Source: a virus. From it: a stretch of DNA of 39,620 bases. Made by a program: the position numbers and the translations under genes. Positions 3,698-14,420 of the stretch are shown here, one piece after another (the first letter of the stretch is position 1; each line of letters begins with the position of its first letter). The DNA is taken from positions 1 to 39,620 of IMG/VR virus record IMGVR_UViG_3300036770_005021; one strand, given 5' to 3'. The notes beneath the pieces are model-generated. The model ran no database searches, was not told where the DNA came from, and worked only from the letters and a program-made list of their open reading frames with translations.

Positions 3698-4259
3698 AAG
3701 CCCATCCCTGACGATTCTGAGCTTCGCTCTCCATCCTCTTTTGATAACCTCGTTGAGTTTCGTTCTTTATCCCGTCAAACAATTCTTTAAACTTATCAGG
3801 CTTTCCGCATGTGCCCCCAGGAGGGTGAGGCCAGTACCCGCCGGTGTAGGGTTCGGGCAGCTTGTCGCCACCGGCTGTTGCGACGCAAACGAGGTAGCCT
3901 TTTCCGCCGAGGTTGTTGAAGATGTTGCAAAGCTGTTCTTTGAAGCCTAGCTGGCCATTCTCGTTTCGGCAAGACATGTGGAAAGAGAGGGGGCAAGCGA
4001 AGTTGTTTTCGTTTTGCTTCAAACTAAAAGTCACGTTTTTATACTCTTTAATTCTACGTACTTGTTCGTATTTCTCGGATTCATAATTAAAGATATTGTC
4101 CGTCACAGCATCGCTTATCTCAATCTTTAGCGAGCTTCCCTCAGGTATGCGCACTCTAGCCATCTGCCTGTTGAAAAAGTTAACGTTTATCATGCAGTCT
4201 GGATGTGGTTGAGGAGCGCCTGGCTTTTTATCCGCTCCCTCTTGATCGTACTTACTCAT
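3696..4259 (-). CDS. Unknown protein of the replication operon
   Basis: This 187-aa protein is not recognised. It has a predicted beta-rich centre (MINVNFFNRQMARVRIPEG), a Gly/Pro-rich stretch (EPYTGGYWPHPPGGTCG, near residue 140) and five scattered Cys. Its ATG overlaps the stop region of the replication protein by 8 bp, so it is probably translated from the same mRNA as the third gene of that operon. Confidence 0.65.
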   Translation of the reverse strand: MSKYDQEGADKKPGAPQPHPDCMINVNFFNRQMARVRIPEGSSLKIEISDAVTDNIFNYESEKYEQVRRIKEYKNVTFSLKQNENNFACPLSFHMSCRNENGQLGFKEQLCNIFNNLGGKGYLVCVATAGGDKLPEPYTGGYWPHPPGGTCGKPDKFKELFDGIKNETQRGYQKRMESEAQNRQGWA

Positions 4260-5328
4260 CTCTTTTCCTAAGTTTAAATATTCTAATCATTTCCTGTTCA
4301 AAATAAGAGGGTTCCGATGTTAACAAAACTCTTTCTCCAGTGTCAAGGCGGACTAGGTGAGTATCGCTCAGGAAAAACTCGGTGTGAAATCGATTGCCGT
4401 CGGCTCTGAAAGAATGCTTTACCTGCAAAGCTAGTTCTCGGTTCTGCTGCTTCCAGCCAGCCTCTCCCTTCTTTGGCATGGATTTAACAAGAATCTTGTC
4501 GAAATTGCGCCTGAGTCCGTCTGCCGATTGAAGCGTTTTGTGCCAAAAATCGTCTTTGAAGGCGAAGTCTATCACGCGATTGAGGTCTTCGACCGTCCTT
4601 CCGTCGAGGCGTATAGCCAGATCGATCTCCTTTGCCCATTTCCGAGGGTCGGGGGCTTTGGCCTTTGGGTTGACCTCGGAAACGTGCCTCCACAACTTAG
4701 CGGCTATGTTAAGAGCTTCCTCGGGGATAGGCTTTTCTTCTTTCTTTTGCTTTTTTGGGGTTGGTATCTCTACCGTCCCGACATCCGCATCGGATGAGGG
4801 TCGCCCCCCGTTTCGGGGCGGGGGGGGGAGACACTCCTCTGGAGTGTCGACAAGAGAGTTAAATCTGTTTAAGTATATGTTTTTAGTATCTGGTATAGGT
4901 GTGGGAGGTCTCCTTTCTCCATTTGGGAGGTCTCCTTTCTCCATTTGGGAGATCTCCCTTTCGTAAAAATTATTTGAAAATTCGTTCTCGTTTACGAAGG
5001 CGTACCAAGCTGTTCGGTCAAATGCGGACTTGTTGAAATTTCCTTTTATCAAGACTGGCTCAAAGTCTTTTCCGTCCTTTTTGCTTTTTCTTCCTCTGCC
5101 TGTGCATAGCCTTTCTAAAATAGCTCTGATTTCTTCTTTAGTTAGATATGGAAATCTGACTGCGATTTCGTCTAGCGTTTGATACGTCCACGTTCTTCCT
5201 TCGTGAAAATTTTTCCCCATACTTCTGTTAAAAGAGATCCAGTGCTGGAAGTGGTGAATGAGGACAGCCTCAAGCGCTCCGTATTTCTGCGCAAGTTCTA
5301 TGTCGAAAGAATGGTGCATTGATCTCAT
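4252..5328 (-). CDS. Replication initiation protein (lambda O / DnaD-like organisation)
   Basis: This 358-aa protein has an N-terminal winged-helix region (LAQKYGALEAVLIHHFQHW; TYQTLDEIAVRFPYLTKEEI) of the type found in phage replisome organisers. A low-complexity linker follows, then a C-terminal helical domain (WRHVSEVNPKAKAPDPRKWA) like those that recruit helicase loaders. The open frame extends to 5409, but the ATG at 5328 overlaps the upstream stop as ATGA (5328-5325) and has a GGAAGGCGG site, so I use it. The linker DNA contains three 22-bp palindromic iterons (4903-4958) and one copy of the 72-bp in-frame repeat (4790-4861). An origin inside the linker of its own initiator gene is the known lambda O arrangement. 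Confidence 0.75.
   Translation of the reverse strand: MRSMHHSFDIELAQKYGALEAVLIHHFQHWISFNRSMGKNFHEGRTWTYQTLDEIAVRFPYLTKEEIRAILERLCTGRGRKSKKDGKDFEPVLIKGNFNKSAFDRTAWYAFVNENEFSNNFYEREISQMEKGDLPNGERRPPTPIPDTKNIYLNRFNSLVDTPEECLPPPPRNGGRPSSDADVGTVEIPTPKKQKKEEKPIPEEALNIAAKLWRHVSEVNPKAKAPDPRKWAKEIDLAIRLDGRTVEDLNRVIDFAFKDDFWHKTLQSADGLRRNFDKILVKSMPKKGEAGWKQQNRELALQVKHSFRADGNRFHTEFFLSDTHLVRLDTGERVLLTSEPSYFEQEMIRIFKLRKRDE
4790..4861. repeat. 72-bp palindromic in-frame repeat, copy A
   Basis: Identical over all 72 bases to 5365-5436. It contains a GC hairpin (CCCCG-TTT-CGGGG with G-rich flank) and a perfect 8-bp hairpin (GACACTCC-TCT-GGAGTGTC). On the minus strand it encodes SLVDTPEECLPPPPRNGGRP plus two serines, in frame inside the replication protein linker. 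Confidence 0.9.
4903..4958. repeat. Three 22-bp palindromic iterons, candidate replication origin
   Basis: Units begin at 4903, 4925 and 4947 with an exact 22-bp period. Each carries GGGAGRTCTCC, and the third (GGGAGATCTCCC) is a perfect palindrome. The first two units are identical. AT-rich DNA lies on both sides (4861-4900 and 4958-4985). Position within the initiator gene and helical-scale spacing match iteron origins of lambda type. Confidence 0.65.
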
Positions 5329-5885
5329 TTTCCGCCTTCCCGTTTTTGCATTCTGGAAACGTTTTCGGATGAGGGTCGCCCCCCGTTTCGGGGCGGGGGG
5401 GGGAGACACTCCTCTGGAGTGTCGACAAGAGAGTTATTACTCTCTCTAAGTACTTTCTCTAGATATGTATTATTAATAGTGGGGGTCTGTCCAGGGACGG
5501 GGCGATCCAGGGACGGGTTTTTGCATTCTGGAAACATTTTTTGAAATTCTTCCGAAGAAGTCTTAGTTTCAAAGACATAGTATTCCCAGGCGACGATTGC
5601 CCTATGGGGGGTCAGCACTTTCACCCTGTGGACATATCCAGCCCTCAAAAGCACGTTCATTAGCCGTCGGATGGTGTCTACGCTTACCCCATACTCCTTG
5701 GCTAAGTTAGCAGTTCTTATCGTCCAACTTGCTGGCTTAGAAAGTAGCCTCGCCCAAAATCCTGCTGCTTCAAATGTTAAGTTTTGGTCGTTAAGCGATC
5801 TGTTGTTTATGATCGTGTAAGGATTATTCCTGTCGTGTACAATCCGTATGATGGATTGACTAGAATTTGTGTTTTGATTTAGCAT
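5325..5885 (-). CDS. Winged-helix replication/regulatory protein (HTH_36-like)
   Basis: Of 186 aa, residues 30-95 (NLTFEAAGFWARLLSKPASW, then LAKEYGVSVDTIRRLMNVLL) match the winged-helix domain common in phage and plasmid replication initiators and replisome organisers. It is first in the operon and coupled by ATGA to the next initiator. The C-terminal 35 residues look added: they contain the 72-bp in-frame repeat (copy B) and part of a 24-bp direct repeat (5342-5365 and 5517-5540), so the original end may have been displaced. The start codon region ATGCTAAATCAAA is duplicated 22 bp upstream, creating a tiny 6-codon leader ORF. Confidence 0.7.
   Translation of the reverse strand: MLNQNTNSSQSIIRIVHDRNNPYTIINNRSLNDQNLTFEAAGFWARLLSKPASWTIRTANLAKEYGVSVDTIRRLMNVLLRAGYVHRVKVLTPHRAIVAWEYYVFETKTSSEEFQKMFPECKNPSLDRPVPGQTPTINNTYLEKVLRESNNSLVDTPEECLPPPPRNGGRPSSENVSRMQKREGGK
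5342..5365. repeat. 24-bp direct repeat, copy 1 (partner at 5517-5540)
   Basis: GTTTTTGCATTCTGGAAAC plus five bases matches 5517-5540 with one mismatch. The two copies bracket a 151-bp segment that includes 72-bp repeat copy B, suggesting a duplication or insertion at the 3' end of the first replication gene. Confidence 0.75.
5365..5436. repeat. 72-bp palindromic in-frame repeat, copy B
   Basis: Exact copy of 4790-4861, read in the same frame near the C-terminus of the upstream winged-helix gene. Identity over 72 bases with unrelated flanks points to a recent copying event. Confidence 0.9.
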
Positions 5886-9020: not shown

Positions 9021-9266
9021 ATGGACACGATTTCTTTAATTACTATCGCAACCGTTGTGGTTGCTAACATCGGAACCGTGATAGGTTTGTTTACGTGGGC
9101 AACTAACCATGCTGCTAGCGATGCAAAATCGCTAAGAGATTCTATGGAAAAATCCTCTCAGGACACAAGAAGGATACTTGAATCAATTCAGGCTGAGATC
9201 AAGGATTTTCACGGGAGGCTTTGCTCCATAGAAGAAAGAAATTCCAAGAAAATACTAAAAGATTGA
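9021..9266 (+). CDS. Membrane-anchored coiled-coil protein, paralog 1
   Basis: This 81-aa protein has residues 4-27 (ISLITIATVVVANIGTVIGL) as a transmembrane segment, and the rest is a charged helix ending EIKDFHGRLCSIEERN. The same plan and the same ending (EIKDFHGRLCAIEER) occur in the protein at 12367-12594. It is a class of small phage membrane proteins of unknown function that could be holin-like or exclusion-like. The gene overlaps the next by one base (TGATG). Confidence 0.7.
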   Translation: MDTISLITIATVVVANIGTVIGLFTWATNHAASDAKSLRDSMEKSSQDTRRILESIQAEIKDFHGRLCSIEERNSKKILKD

Positions 9267-9400
9267 TGCCTGTTAAAGAGACATACCCTAATTGGATATG
9301 CCTACACTGCGCAAGAAAGCTAGGACGTAGCAATACGTCCATAGTGTCTACTTGGCACACTGGGGCGTGTGGTTGGTGCAGTAAATACTCCCTCAGCTAA
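9266..9400 (+). CDS. 44-aa zinc-ribbon protein
   Basis: ATG 9266 overlaps the preceding stop (TGATG). The protein has two CxxC pairs (WICLHCARKLGR... ACGWCSKY) around 'STWHTGAC'. A small phage family with the pattern P-x-W-I-C-x-x-C ... T-W-H-x-G-x-C-x-x-C is known and probably binds zinc. It lacks the long tail seen in many relatives. Role unknown. Confidence 0.7.
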   Translation: MPVKETYPNWICLHCARKLGRSNTSIVSTWHTGACGWCSKYSLS

Positions 9401-9682: not shown

Positions 9683-9712
9683 TTGACTATCAACCAAACA
9701 TTTATGTAAGAT
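9683..9712 (+). promoter_or_regulatory. Promoter for the peptide/membrane-protein cassette
   Basis: TTGACT (9683-9688), 18 bp, TAAGAT (9707-9712). Expected start near 9719, 20 bp before the ATG of the first peptide gene. Confidence 0.45.
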
Positions 9713-9738: not shown

Positions 9739-9972
9739 ATGTTAAGTGGAGTTTCCAGTTCGCTTCCGTCTTTTGGTGTACCTATCTTAAATTCCCCAAT
9801 TAAGGCAGCTACACTTACCTTGTTAGCCCTCGCGATTTTGTCAAATATCCCAAAGGCGGAAGGAGGCCCCATTACATGCGCCATGTGCTTTACGACATGC
9901 TTAGCTATTGTCAAAGAGCCAACAACTTGCTCAGGCATTTGCGCGTCGCTTTGTGCGGCCCCTTTAGCGTAG
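9739..9972 (+). CDS. Secreted-type Cys-rich peptide, cassette member 1
   Basis: The start is ATG 9739 with AAAGGAGT 5 nt upstream; the longer frame from 9631 lacks a ribosome site. The 77-aa precursor has a hydrophobic leader (KAATLTLLALAILSNIPKAE) ending in A-E-G/G-P, which could be cleaved by signal peptidase I or read as a GG-type leader. The predicted mature part, starting at GP, has six Cys (CAMCFTTC ... CSGICASLC) in ~35 residues. The first 18 residues (SSSLPSFG) and the leader match the gene at 10198. Toxin-like, bacteriocin-like or signalling roles are all possible. No family is proven. Confidence 0.6.
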   Translation: MLSGVSSSLPSFGVPILNSPIKAATLTLLALAILSNIPKAEGGPITCAMCFTTCLAIVKEPTTCSGICASLCAAPLA

Positions 9973-9977
9973 GTGAT

Positions 9978-10190
9978 ATGAACGAAGAGCCAACATTTCA
10001 CATAATCGGAGTAATCGTCTTTGCAGTAGTCCTAAAGGCTTTCTTGGGCGCGCTGTTTGGTGTGTGGGGAGTTTCTATCTCTCCATTTAACGGGAAGGTG
10101 AAGTTTCGTTTTAGAAACATTGCCAGCGCTTTCCTAATCATCTTGTCGCTTTACCAAATTTTCGGATGTCTATTTTTAAAAACAAACTAA
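9978..10190 (+). CDS. 70-aa membrane protein between two peptide genes
   Basis: ATG 9978 follows AGGTGA. Residues 9-30 (IIGVIVFAVVLKAFLGALFG) and 49-66 (ASAFLIILSLYQIFGCLF) are two likely transmembrane helices with a basic loop between them (NGKVKFRFRN). It begins 5 bp after the first peptide stop and ends 7 bp before the next peptide start, so the three are co-transcribed. An immunity, holin-like or export role is suggested by context only. Confidence 0.6.
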   Translation: MNEEPTFHIIGVIVFAVVLKAFLGALFGVWGVSISPFNGKVKFRFRNIASAFLIILSLYQIFGCLFLKTN

Positions 10191-10197
10191 GGATTTT

Positions 10198-10413
10198 ATG
10201 ATTCAAGGTATCTCTAGTTCGCTACCATCTATCGGCTTTTCGCCGATGTCATCGCCTGTAAAAACAGCAGCAATTACATTGCTTGCTCTTTCCATCTTAT
10301 CGAGCATCCCAACTGTATCAGCCGGCCCCATTGCCTACGCCACATGCGTATCGGCATCAGGCCCTTGGGGAGCCGTTCTTTGCCTTCCATTACTCTTAGC
10401 ACCAGGAGCGTAG
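10198..10413 (+). CDS. Secreted-type peptide, cassette member 2
   Basis: This 71-aa precursor is clearly related to member 1: ISSSLPSIG, then a hydrophobic leader (ITLLALSILSSIPTVSA) ending V-S-A before GP, a good signal-peptidase site. The predicted mature part (GPIAYATCVSASGPWGAVLC) is short and has two Cys and a hydrophobic Pro-rich tail. It starts 1 bp ahead of the third member. Function unknown. Confidence 0.6.
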   Translation: MIQGISSSLPSIGFSPMSSPVKTAAITLLALSILSSIPTVSAGPIAYATCVSASGPWGAVLCLPLLLAPGA

Positions 10414-10414
10414 C

Positions 10415-10699
10415 ATGTACGCAAGAGCAGTATCAGCAGCAGCACCGATTGCAACATATGCACTATCGACAGCAAGCAACGCGGCTCGACAAATGACGAT
10501 CCAAAAAGTGGGGACTTTTGTTCTTGGAACCTTGGGTATTTTAGCCCTAGACTCCATGACCAAAGCCGAAGCGGGCCCAGCGGCAGAGATCGCTTGTATG
10601 GCAGCGTGTAGCGCAGCAGCTTTTACGCCGTGGGGCATTGCAGCCTATCCGGCTTGTATGACTGCTTGCGTTTTAGTTGGGCTTTTGCCAGGTCCATGA
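10415..10699 (+). CDS. Secreted-type peptide, cassette member 3
   Basis: This 94-aa precursor has a longer Ala-rich start and a hydrophobic leader (FVLGTLGILALDSMTKAEA) ending A-E-A before GP, as in the other two members. The mature part has four Cys in two CxxxC pairs (CMAAC and CMTAC) around FTPWGIAAYPA, ending LLPGP. The A-x-A/GP junction, CxxxC spacing and Pro tail recall small 'AGP..C..C' secreted peptides seen in various eukaryotes and microbes. That comparison is from memory. The next gene starts inside its stop region. Confidence 0.6.
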   Translation: MYARAVSAAAPIATYALSTASNAARQMTIQKVGTFVLGTLGILALDSMTKAEAGPAAEIACMAACSAAAFTPWGIAAYPACMTACVLVGLLPGP

Positions 10700-11079
10700 T
10701 GCTAGCATTATTGATCGGAATTAGTTGCATCCTCCCAGCACTTATCGGTGTTGGGATGGAACTTTTGGGCATCGATACGCGGGAAAAGAAGCAAGCCTAC
10801 CTTTGGACTGTATGCTTTTCCATTTTGTTTACATTTTTCATAGGGACGGTAATAGAAGTGGATTCGGAAAATTTTTCAGAGATAAGCTGTAGAGTTTTAC
10901 CAGCAATTATTTACATTATAGAGATCGCCTTTGCGTCGCTTCTCGTGCAATGCTCGATCAACATCCTGTTCAACATCTCCTTTCAGATACGGAGATACTT
11001 TGGGATTTTTATAGGGCTTTTGGGATTGGGATTGGTTGTTGGAGCGTTATTCAACAATATTATTCTGAGTGTTTTTTGA
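10696..11079 (+). CDS. 127-aa multi-pass membrane protein closing the cassette
   Basis: ATG 10696 overlaps the preceding stop as ATGA. Four hydrophobic segments are visible (MMLALLIGISCILPALIG; YLWTVCFSILFTFFIGTV; VLPAIIYIIEIAFASLLV; YFGIFIGLLGLGLVVGAL), so it is probably an inner-membrane protein. Translational coupling to a secreted-peptide gene suggests immunity, export or a joint membrane action. No family recognised. Confidence 0.6.
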   Translation: MMLALLIGISCILPALIGVGMELLGIDTREKKQAYLWTVCFSILFTFFIGTVIEVDSENFSEISCRVLPAIIYIIEIAFASLLVQCSINILFNISFQIRRYFGIFIGLLGLGLVVGALFNNIILSVF

Positions 11080-11091
11080 ATCCAGGGCAAG

Positions 11092-11305
11092 CTACTGAAC
11101 TTTGACTTGCTGAGATACCACGCCATTACCACAGGCTCTAATTCTGTGTGCCCGATAGGGAGGCCCATCATCCACTCCAAGAAGGGGAAATTCAGTTTCT
11201 TCCCAGTAGACGGTCGATTTCGCAATAGGCGATTGGTTTGACCCATTCTTTGAGAGCGATTGAGATCCCTCCGTATCCACTAAAGAGATCGAGTCCTCTG
11301 AGCAT
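11092..11305 (-). pseudogene. Decayed C5 cytosine-specific DNA methyltransferase
   Basis: Three pieces of one enzyme survive in different minus-strand frames. From ATG 11305 comes motif I, MLRGLDLFSGYGGISIALKE, continuing to AYCEIDR and a stop at 11192. A second frame gives FLEWMMGLPIGHTELEP, typical of the C-terminal half. A third gives YRAHRIRACGNGVVSQQ, matching motif X. The central ~200 residues, including the catalytic PC motif, are missing. The gene has suffered a large deletion and frameshifts and cannot be active. Confidence 0.7.
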
Positions 11306-11394
11306 TCTAAGTAAATCCACATAATTTTTTGTCACCCTAAGTTAAGTAAATATTTGAGTCAACAAGAAATATAGGGAGTAGTAATCTTTGCCTC

Positions 11395-12366: not shown

Positions 12367-12594
12367 GTGGAAATGAGTTGGATTCAAGTATTGGTTATTG
12401 CTTTTGGAAATATTGCTTGGATGTTGCCTTTGTTCTTTTGGGTGAGGTCTGAATCGAGAGCCGACGCTAGGCATTTCGACAACGAAACAAAAGCTATTCG
12501 TAGGGAATTGATCGACGTTATGCGATCCATCGAGCAAGAGATTAAAGACTTTCACGGAAGGCTTTGTGCTATTGAGGAGAGGCGTAAGCAATGA
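12367..12594 (+). CDS. Membrane-anchored coiled-coil protein, paralog 2
   Basis: This 75-aa protein starts with GTG 12367, 6 nt after AAGGAG (an internal ATG is at 12373). A hydrophobic segment (IQVLVIAFGNIAWMLPLFFW) is followed by a charged helix ending EIKDFHGRLCAIEERRK, nearly the same ending as the protein at 9021. DNA of the two differs at many third positions, so the duplication is old. It is coupled by ATGA to the serine recombinase gene. Confidence 0.7.
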   Translation: MEMSWIQVLVIAFGNIAWMLPLFFWVRSESRADARHFDNETKAIRRELIDVMRSIEQEIKDFHGRLCAIEERRKQ

Positions 12595-13199
12595 AAGTCG
12601 GATATGTCAGGGTCAGTGCGCCCGATCAAAATCCAGCTAGGCAGCTTGAGGGCGTTGAGCTGGATATGCGATTCGAGGAATATGCCTCGGCAAAGAGCTA
12701 CGAACGTCCAAAGCTTCTTGAGATGATCAACTTTGTCCGAGATGGCGACGAGGTTTATATTCATTCTCTTGATAGAGCAGCAAGGAATGTGGGCGATGCG
12801 AGACGGCTTATCGAAACCTTGAACAGTAAGAATGTCCCGGTTCATTTCGTTAAAGAGGGGCTTTCCTTTAGAGGGGGAGATTCGCCTGTTTCTGTGCTAA
12901 TGCTTAATATCCTTGTTTCGGTTGCTGAGTTTGAGAGAGCCTTGATCTTAGAGAGGCAGAGAGAGGGTATCGCTATAGCAAAGAAGAAAGGGGCGTATAA
13001 GGGTGCTAGGTGTAAATGGGACGAGTCGGTAGCTCCTCGAATGATCAATATGCTAAATATGGGCATGTCGATCCCTAAGCTTGCCCAGCAACTTGATGTG
13101 ACGATACCGACTGTATATAAGTACATGGAAAAGTTTGGCATTAAAAGAAACAAGACTAACCAGTTTAAGTTAGAAAAAGAGCCAGAGGAGGCAATTTAA
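12591..13199 (+). CDS. Serine recombinase (resolvase/invertase family)
   Basis: This 202-aa protein has the N-terminal catalytic domain with nucleophile S9 in MKVGYVRVSAPDQNPARQ, 'YIHSLDRAARN' with D61/R62/R65, and helix E 'EFERALILERQREGIAIAKK'. A short C-terminal helix-turn-helix (IPKLAQQLDVTIPTVYKYM) binds DNA. This is the small resolvase/invertase layout, not the IS607 type with an N-terminal HTH, so it is probably not the transposase of the adjacent tnpB. It may resolve multimers, invert a segment, or act in integration. Coupled (ATGA) to the upstream membrane-protein gene. Confidence 0.85.
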   Translation: MKVGYVRVSAPDQNPARQLEGVELDMRFEEYASAKSYERPKLLEMINFVRDGDEVYIHSLDRAARNVGDARRLIETLNSKNVPVHFVKEGLSFRGGDSPVSVLMLNILVSVAEFERALILERQREGIAIAKKKGAYKGARCKWDESVAPRMINMLNMGMSIPKLAQQLDVTIPTVYKYMEKFGIKRNKTNQFKLEKEPEEAI

Positions 13200-13238
13200 T
13201 ATGTACGTATCATATGAAATAGATTTTCATCCTATTGA

Positions 13239-13290
13239 CGAGGTGGAAACCCATCCCTTTAGGGGTGGGAGGAAACCTCGCTCCTTTTTT
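13239..13290 (+). terminator. Double-stem hairpin with U-run between recombinase and tnpB
   Basis: CGAGGT (13239-13244) pairs with ACCTCG (13275-13280), and inside it CCCATCCC (13250-13257) pairs with GGGGTGGG (13262-13269) around TTTA, then CTCC and six T residues. It works as a terminator for the recombinase gene. The CCCATCCC-TTTA-GGGGTGGG core also looks like hairpins found beside tnpB elements, so it may mark the left part of the insertion. Confidence 0.55.
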
Positions 13291-13328
13291 GATTGCTTTA
13301 ATTCCTCTTGTGGTGAAAAATATTCTCC

Positions 13329-14420
13329 ATGGAAACACGAACAGTATGTTGCAAGCTTCTTACTACTCCGCCAATCAATACCGCCTTGCAAGAAACAAGC
13401 GAGCGTTTTTCCGATTCATGCAACTATGTTCTTAAAATAGCTGTCGAAGAAAAAACTAACAATGCAATCAAACTGCATAAGTTGTGCTATGCAAAAATTA
13501 GAGAGTTGTTTTGCCTTTCCGCAAATCTTGCTGTTAGAGCAATCAGGCGCGTTGTTGCTTGCATGACTAAATTGAAAGGTAAGCGCAAACAACCTAAAAA
13601 ATTTAGTGCAAAAAGCGTCGACTATGATGCGCGTATTTTTTCCTATCGAGAACGGGATGAAACCGTTTCTTTGACTACGACAAAGGGTCGTATCCGAGTA
13701 TCGATGATTCTTGGTGAACATCAACGAAAGTCTCTCAAAGGACAAAATCCCACTTCCGCAACCGTTATAAAGAAGGGAAAGGATTGGTATATCCATATAG
13801 TAGTCGAGTTTACTCCAATCCCGATTGATGGCACCGTAGTAATGGGAATCGATCTTGGTGTAAACAATATAGCTACTACTTCTACGGGATTGCGGATTGA
13901 AGGAAAAGAGAGACAAGACTTTAAACAAAAACAAGCAAATGTACGAGCAAGTTTGCAGTCCAAAGGAAAGAAAGGCACAAGAAAAGTTCTGAAAAAACTT
14001 TCGGGATATGAAAAACGAAGAATTAAATACGAAAACCATGTTCTTTCTAAACAACTTGTAGAGGATGCCAAAAGGCATAATTGCGGAGTAATTCGCATGG
14101 AACAGCTTAAGGATATTCGATCCAAGACGAAGACGTGGAACAAACATCTTAACCGCATGGTGGCTGGATGGAGCTTTTACCAACTGCAGCAATTTGTTAT
14201 TTACAAGGCAGCTGCCTTTGGTATTGCTGTCGAATTTGTTAATCCTGCTTATACAAGTCAAACTTGTCACCATTGTTTAAATTTAGGCTCTCGAAAGGGA
14301 GAGCGTTTTACTTGTTTAACCTGTGGCGAGCAACATGCAGATGTAAATGCATCGCATGTGATCGCTTTAGGCGGGATTGCCTGTAAACCAGTCCGAATTA
14401 GCGCCCGTAAGGGCAGTTAA
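13329..14420 (+). CDS. tnpB: TnpB (RNA-guided nuclease of IS200/IS605/IS607-type elements), no TnpA partner
   Basis: This 363-aa protein starts METRTVCCKLLTTPPI, the usual TnpB N-terminus (start ATG 13329). All catalytic parts are present: RuvC-I D175 in MGIDLGVNN, RuvC-II E258 in VIRMEQLKDI, the zinc ribbon C313/C316 and C329/C332 (TCHHC, TCLTC), and RuvC-III D338 in HADVNASH. TnpB is known as an omegaRNA-guided DNA endonuclease that favours transposon retention. No Y1 transposase is nearby, so it is a stand-alone (IS1341-like) copy. Length is near typical, with no frameshift. The 3' end folds into a possible guide-RNA scaffold. Confidence 0.9.
   Translation: METRTVCCKLLTTPPINTALQETSERFSDSCNYVLKIAVEEKTNNAIKLHKLCYAKIRELFCLSANLAVRAIRRVVACMTKLKGKRKQPKKFSAKSVDYDARIFSYRERDETVSLTTTKGRIRVSMILGEHQRKSLKGQNPTSATVIKKGKDWYIHIVVEFTPIPIDGTVVMGIDLGVNNIATTSTGLRIEGKERQDFKQKQANVRASLQSKGKKGTRKVLKKLSGYEKRRIKYENHVLSKQLVEDAKRHNCGVIRMEQLKDIRSKTKTWNKHLNRMVAGWSFYQLQQFVIYKAAAFGIAVEFVNPAYTSQTCHHCLNLGSRKGERFTCLTCGEQHADVNASHVIALGGIACKPVRISARKGS

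What the first reader, a model, noticed from the sequence alone, without database searches (positions are those of the whole stretch)
9739..11079. Cassette of three related secreted-type peptides interleaved with two membrane proteins
Three small precursors (77, 71 and 94 aa) share a hydrophobic leader ending A-E-G, V-S-A or A-E-A immediately before Gly-Pro, then Cys-containing, Pro-ended mature parts with 6, 2 and 4 Cys. Two are alike from the first residues (SSSLPS.G). Between and after them lie a 2-helix and a ~4-helix membrane protein with spacing of 1-7 bp or ATGA overlap. Peptide genes plus tightly coupled membrane genes is the layout of bacteriocin/immunity, toxin/exclusion or membrane-lysis systems, but I recognise no known one. 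It lies in the accessory part next to an IS-like relic. It could also stand in for the unrecognised lysis genes.
Basis: partly seen in the sequence, partly recalled or inferred. Interest (0 to 1): 0.8.

Follow-up and report, generated by a model that had tools for sequence, protein, structure and literature searches.

The report
Phage-encoded secreted cysteine-hairpin peptides
An uncultured tailed phage carries three related genes for tiny, apparently secreted, membrane-loving peptides whose paired cysteines should staple them into a helical hairpin; the same undescribed peptide family turns up singly in a few other phages, so it is a real but optional phage gene kind whose job is still unproven.

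Summary
Three ORFs (77, 71, 94 aa) with a hydrophobic leader ending A-x-A/G before Gly-Pro, interleaved with a 2-helix and a ~4-helix membrane protein, are present as described. P1 and P2 are paralogues under purifying selection in their leaders (pS 0.74, pN 0.28), while their mature parts have diverged. No Pfam, PHROGs, NCBIfam or PADLOC family matches above cut-off. Degenerate-pattern scans of IMG/VR found homologous peptides in five other phage contigs. At least three belong to the same phage clade as the window; one is a more distant phage. This defines an undescribed family: A-x-A|GPxxYxxCxxxC ... CxxxCxPxLxAPTP, with a 29-45 aa, neutral, very hydrophobic mature part. AlphaFold (low overall confidence) models the mature parts as helical hairpins, which the CX3C-Xn-CX3C spacing could staple. 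In all five homologous loci the peptide stands alone, without multi-helix membrane genes and at different genome positions, so 'peptide plus immunity pair' is not a property of the family. The family is patchy: none in 44 other relatives. Most likely these are exported, disulfide-stapled, membrane-active accessory peptides (exclusion or bacteriocin-like). Which membrane they act on is unknown, and so is the host. Lysis is unlikely.

The parts
9739..9972 (+). P1, 77-aa precursor: 42-aa leader (A-E-G) | GPITCAMCFTTC...CSGICASLCAAPLA, 6 Cys; ribosome-binding site AAGGAG
9978..10190 (+). P4, 70-aa protein with two hydrophobic segments; orphan
10198..10413 (+). P2, 71-aa precursor, paralogue of P1 in the leader: 42-aa leader (V-S-A) | GPIAYATC...LCLPLLLAPGA, 2 Cys
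10415..10699 (+). P3, 94-aa precursor: 53-aa leader (A-E-A) | GPAAEIACMAAC-X15-CMTACVLVGLLPGP, 4 Cys as CX3C-X15-CX3C
10696..11079 (+). P5, 127-aa protein with about four hydrophobic segments, ATGA overlap with P3; orphan
9683..9712 (+). promoter-like TTGACT-18-TAAGAT upstream of P1 (no excess of such sites over shuffles; weak)

Best explanation
P1, P2 and P3 are members of a previously undescribed phage accessory (moron) family of exported peptides. The leader directs export and is probably cut at A-x-A|Gly-Pro. It releases a 29-45 aa, neutral, strongly hydrophobic peptide. In most members two CX3C motifs, one per helix, would oxidise outside the cytoplasm into a disulfide-stapled helical hairpin that inserts into or lies in a membrane. 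There it most likely alters the envelope of the infected cell (superinfection exclusion) or acts on competing cells, bacteriocin-like. In this phage the gene has been duplicated and diversified into three variants, and the two membrane proteins interleaved with them may be local partners or self-protection. Shown: the genes, the family, purifying selection on the P1/P2 leaders, the conserved GP/Cys pattern, patchy presence in related phages. Computed but low confidence: the helical hairpin. Inferred: cleavage, disulfides, membrane insertion, biological purpose, role of P4/P5.
For: Features as described. P1/P2 leader pS 0.74 against pN 0.28. Homologues L129, L134/G336, L149/G337 and L157/L162 share A-x-A|GP, Cys at mature position 8 in all 7 distinct members and at 12 in 6 of 7, mature charge 0 or -1, GRAVY mostly about 1.2. 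Reciprocal profile searches and shuffles. AlphaFold models P1 helices 44-57 and 61-73 and P3 helices 55-69 and 74-90, pLDDT about 70-80 in the mature part only. The best PDB sequence match to the profile is nigellin-1.1, aligned over its CX3C region, E=0.19, not significant. Patchy: 0 of 44 other relatives.
Against: No experiment. Signal peptidase cleavage was judged from motif and hydropathy, not by a trained predictor. The n-region is long (about 20-35 aa), so the leader may not be a classical signal peptide. Leaders alone are not detectably homologous between the window and outside members. P2 has only 2 Cys, so it cannot form a double staple. Mean model confidence is low (57) and no fold match is significant. 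The host is unknown, so the target membrane is a guess.
Confidence: 0.5

Rival explanations
1. Bacteriocin/immunity (or toxin/antitoxin-like) operon: the three peptides are killing peptides and P4 and P5 are dedicated immunity proteins.
For: Tight interleaving with 1-7 bp gaps and ATGA overlap; exported hydrophobic Cys peptides; diversified mature parts behind a conserved leader.
Against: All five homologous loci lack any multi-helix membrane gene within 1.5 kb, so an immunity partner is not required by the family. P4 and P5 are orphans. The peptides are neutral, not cationic.
Confidence: 0.2
2. Secreted effectors acting outside the bacterium, for example on membranes of a eukaryotic cell if the host bacterium is intracellular.
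For: Long serine/proline-containing n-region before the hydrophobic core in several members; strongly hydrophobic Cys-stapled mature part. I recall similar AGP...CxxxC...APTP secreted peptides from amoeba-associated bacteria and from eukaryotes; this is an untested lead.
Against: Host not identified. The only relative in a genome bin is a separate contig in a Bacteroidales MAG, and 395 Bacteroidota genomes lack the peptides (one weak hit with an internal stop). No eukaryotic collection could be searched.
Confidence: 0.17
3. Lysis proteins (small holin-like or disruptin-like peptides) replacing the unrecognised lysis genes.
For: Hydrophobic small peptides; no lysis family is visible among the PHROGs listed for the other window proteins (25 of 55 families shown).
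Against: 0 of 44 relatives carry the peptides although they must lyse too. Position varies: next to the recombination genes, beside terminase, or between portal and terminase. A better lysis/spanin candidate is the recurrent one-helix protein family of 9021-9266 and 12367-12594, found in 20 loci each, with only weak Rz-like hits.
Confidence: 0.08
4. The leader is not cut: the products are three-helix membrane proteins.
For: The leader is modelled as one helix followed by a two-helix hairpin.
Against: A-x-A/G before an invariant GP in every member, and a helix break there in both models.
Confidence: 0.15

Closest known systems
alpha-hairpinins (plant defence peptides; CX3C-Xn-CX3C helix-loop-helix, Cys1-Cys4 and Cys2-Cys3; PMC7191063)
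   Same: Four-Cys spacing in P3 and most phage homologues, predicted helical hairpin, secreted precursor; nigellin-1.1 is the only PDB sequence hit of the profile (E=0.19)
   Different: Much more hydrophobic and neutral; phage-encoded; invariant GP start and APTP-type end; no significant homology
Sec-dependent bacteriocins with small membrane immunity proteins (from general knowledge)
   Same: Exported small peptides beside small membrane proteins in one operon
   Different: No family match; immunity-like genes absent at the homologous loci; neutral peptides
TIGR04117 Cys-Xaa-Xaa-Xaa repeat radical-SAM target peptides
   Same: Weak sub-threshold hits of P3 (E 0.0012) and of two homologues (E 0.0055, 0.25) over the CxxxC region
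   Different: 18.9 bits against a cut-off of 50; no radical SAM domain among the 41 other window proteins scanned
Phage superinfection-exclusion membrane peptides (moron genes; from general knowledge)
   Same: Small exported or membrane peptide, optional, variable position
   Different: No sequence similarity to any PHROGs family; function untested

Membership tests
AGP-type phage peptide family defined here | hydrophobic leader ending [AVG]-x-[AG] directly before GP | tested here: met
AGP-type phage peptide family defined here | Cys at mature position 8, then CX3C pairs | tested here: met
   C8 in all 7; C12 in 6 of 7 (P2 lacks it)
AGP-type phage peptide family defined here | C-terminal AP-T/G-P type end | tested here: inconclusive
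   APTP/MPTP in the outside members; APLA, APGA, LPGP in the window
alpha-hairpinin | C1X3C2-Xn-C3X3C4 | tested here: met
   P3 CX3C-X15-CX3C; P1 contains CX3C-X9-CX3C plus two extra Cys; P2 does not fit
alpha-hairpinin | significant sequence or fold similarity to known members | tested here: not met
   E=0.19 by sequence; no significant fold hit
bacteriocin/immunity pair | immunity protein gene linked to peptide across homologues | tested here: not met
   0 of 5 homologous loci
bacteriocin/immunity pair | killing and specific protection | not testable with these tools
   needs expression assays
radical-SAM modified CxxxC peptides (TIGR04117) | score above curated cut-off and a radical SAM enzyme nearby | tested here: not met
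   18.9 bits against 50; no radical SAM
phage lysis proteins | present throughout the phage clade, matching lysis families | tested here: not met

The most novel reading that the evidence does not exclude
A new class of phage-borne, disulfide-stapled hydrophobic helical-hairpin peptides, exported from the infected cell and diversified by duplication, that act on a membrane beyond the infected cell (a competing bacterium, or the vacuole of a eukaryote that houses the phage's bacterial host).
Probability: 0.25. Interest if true: 0.8.

Novelty: new variant of a known kind. Interest (0 to 1): 0.5.

Why it matters
It identifies an undescribed peptide family, reduced to a searchable signature, in an abundant uncultured phage clade. 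If the peptides are exported stapled hairpins, they are a compact source of new membrane-active peptides and give a direct handle on what optional phage genes do to the envelope. The one-line pattern lets anyone find further members and identify the host.

Tried and rejected
Single-protein searches of IMG/VR, phages and plasmids with P2, P3 or P5 found nothing, and the P1/P2 alignment found nothing in GTDB or IMG/VR. Only hand-made degenerate patterns succeeded, and most pattern hits there are chance ORFs. Host search by major capsid protein gave one contig in a Bacteroidales bin. Bacteroidales genomes lack good relatives of the small membrane protein P0014 apart from that genome and Bacteroidota lack the peptides, so the binning is not good evidence of host. 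DNA similarity to plasmids: none. Codon usage: uninformative. Leader-only profiles: no reliable cross-detection. A weaker candidate in L032/L114 (PKAEG|FGTIGCIICLASGVGLPVCWIPC, E 0.0095) was not counted as a member. Rfam: nothing. IS607 reading of the resolvase rejected: 12591-13199 has resolvase then a C-terminal HTH (invertase-like).

Full report
What the window is. The window is a 39,620-base IMG/VR virus record from an uncultured tailed phage. Portal (PHROG 156), major head protein (PHROG 1357) and terminase are recognisable. Its head protein has at least 132 relatives in IMG/VR; the 80 kept are about 79-87% identical. The cassette lies downstream of the rightward RusA, RecT-like and RecE-like genes and before an invertase-like recombinase and TnpB.

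The observation. All five ORFs, their spacing, the leaders and the Cys counts are as described. The peptides are genuine genes. P1 and P2 are aligned paralogues: over 50 codons there are 60 differences, at codon positions 17/10/33, with pS 0.74 and pN 0.28, and amino-acid identity far above random placement. The conserved part is the leader up to GP; beyond GP the two have diverged. P3 is a weaker relative (local alignment z about 4).

Homologues. Library searches gave no family above cut-off. A degenerate DNA pattern for AGPIAYxxC in IMG/VR gave 16 stretches, of which two encode the same architecture. A pattern for CxxxCxPxLxAPTP added a third. AGPxAYxxCxxxC added two nearly identical ones. 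The members are L129 1381-1626, L134 2133-1873 (minus; contig G336), L149 1805-2089 (contig G337), and L157/L162. A profile built only from outside members ranks P3 (E 5e-7) and P2 (6e-7) just below its own members among 26,931 ORFs; P1 is marginal (0.05). The reverse profile from the window alone finds all five outside members at 1e-9 to 3e-4, while chance pattern hits stay at 0.26 or worse. Shuffling within leader and mature part never reaches the real scores. Caveat: the outside members were chosen by motif, so the AGP...C part is partly selected. P3 did not shape the patterns and is the cleanest test. Leaders alone do not cross-detect.

Anatomy. Every member has [AVG]-x-[AG] before GP, a hydrophobic core of mean hydropathy 2.1-2.4, a net positive n-region, and a 29-45 aa mature part of charge 0 or -1 with GRAVY mostly 1.0-1.3 (0.45 in L162). 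Cys at mature position 8 is invariant and position 12 holds in 6 of 7. AlphaFold, with seven sequences, gives two helices in the mature part of P1 and of P3 at pLDDT about 70-80. The leaders are poorly determined and mean pLDDT is 57. Foldseek against PDB gave nothing significant. The only PDB sequence match to the profile is nigellin-1.1 (E 0.19), consistent in Cys spacing with alpha-hairpinins as described in PMC7191063 but not evidence of descent.

Context in relatives. In L193/L194 (the L157/L162 contigs) the peptide sits beside a small DNA-binding-like gene and the terminase. In G336 it lies between portal and terminase. In G337, a more distant phage (portal 26% identical), it lies on the far side of the recombination genes. 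In L129 it is near a recombinase and P14-like proteins. No multi-helix membrane gene lies within 1.5 kb of any of them. Of 50 records searched with the family profile, only the five already known match; 44 other phage relatives and the MAG do not. The family is therefore an optional, mobile single-gene trait. The window's triplication and its link with P4 and P5 are special to this phage, or at least not seen elsewhere.

Mechanism. The simplest reading is export through the leader, cleavage before GP, oxidation to a stapled hydrophobic hairpin and membrane insertion. Optional presence, duplication and divergence of the mature part behind a constrained leader fit an arms-race role such as superinfection exclusion or bacteriocin-like action. 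A core lysis function fits poorly. This is inference; no function was tested. P4 and P5 could be partners or self-protection, or unrelated passengers.

Host. Unresolved. The one genome-bin hit is a separate 33-kb contig in a Bacteroidales MAG. Clear ribosome-binding sites and the absence of the peptides in 395 Bacteroidota genomes do not support that host. A recollection of similar secreted peptides in amoeba-associated bacteria and eukaryotes could not be tested.

Noticed in passing
window 9021-9266 (+) and 12367-12594 (+): Two paralogous small proteins, one N-terminal membrane helix plus a helical tail ending E-x-KDFHGRLC-x-IEER; matched in 20 loci each among relatives, sometimes in tandem, with only weak Rz-like spanin hits; candidate lysis or envelope proteins of the clade.
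   Followed up: partly
window 11192-11335 (-): 47-aa fragment (GLDLFSGYGGI) resembling the N-terminus of a cytosine DNA methyltransferase, with 4 matching relatives: likely remnant.
   Followed up: no
window 9221-9400 (+): Cys-pair (zinc-ribbon-like) reading frame resembling the tail of membrane + zinc-ribbon proteins in relatives (L107, L121); appears truncated here.
   Followed up: no
window 12591-14420 (+): Invertase/resolvase-type serine recombinase followed by a TnpB; the recombinase is also present in L129 and G337 (about 45% identity) near the peptide gene or in the same phage.
   Followed up: partly
window 4252-5409 and 5325-5885 (-): The two adjacent replication-type genes share the segment 'NSLVDTPEECLPPPPRNGGRPSS', suggesting an internal duplication.
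   Followed up: no
L032/L114 (contig G018): 99-aa exported-type peptide PKAEG|FGTIGCIICLASGVGLPVCWIPCG...; weak profile hit (E 0.0095), possibly a diverged or analogous member.
   Followed up: partly
L096 415-1 (-), contig G022: Partial protein with two closely spaced hydrophobic helices and a serine-rich N-terminus, reminiscent of chlamydial inclusion-membrane proteins; a possible host hint, no library match.
   Followed up: partly
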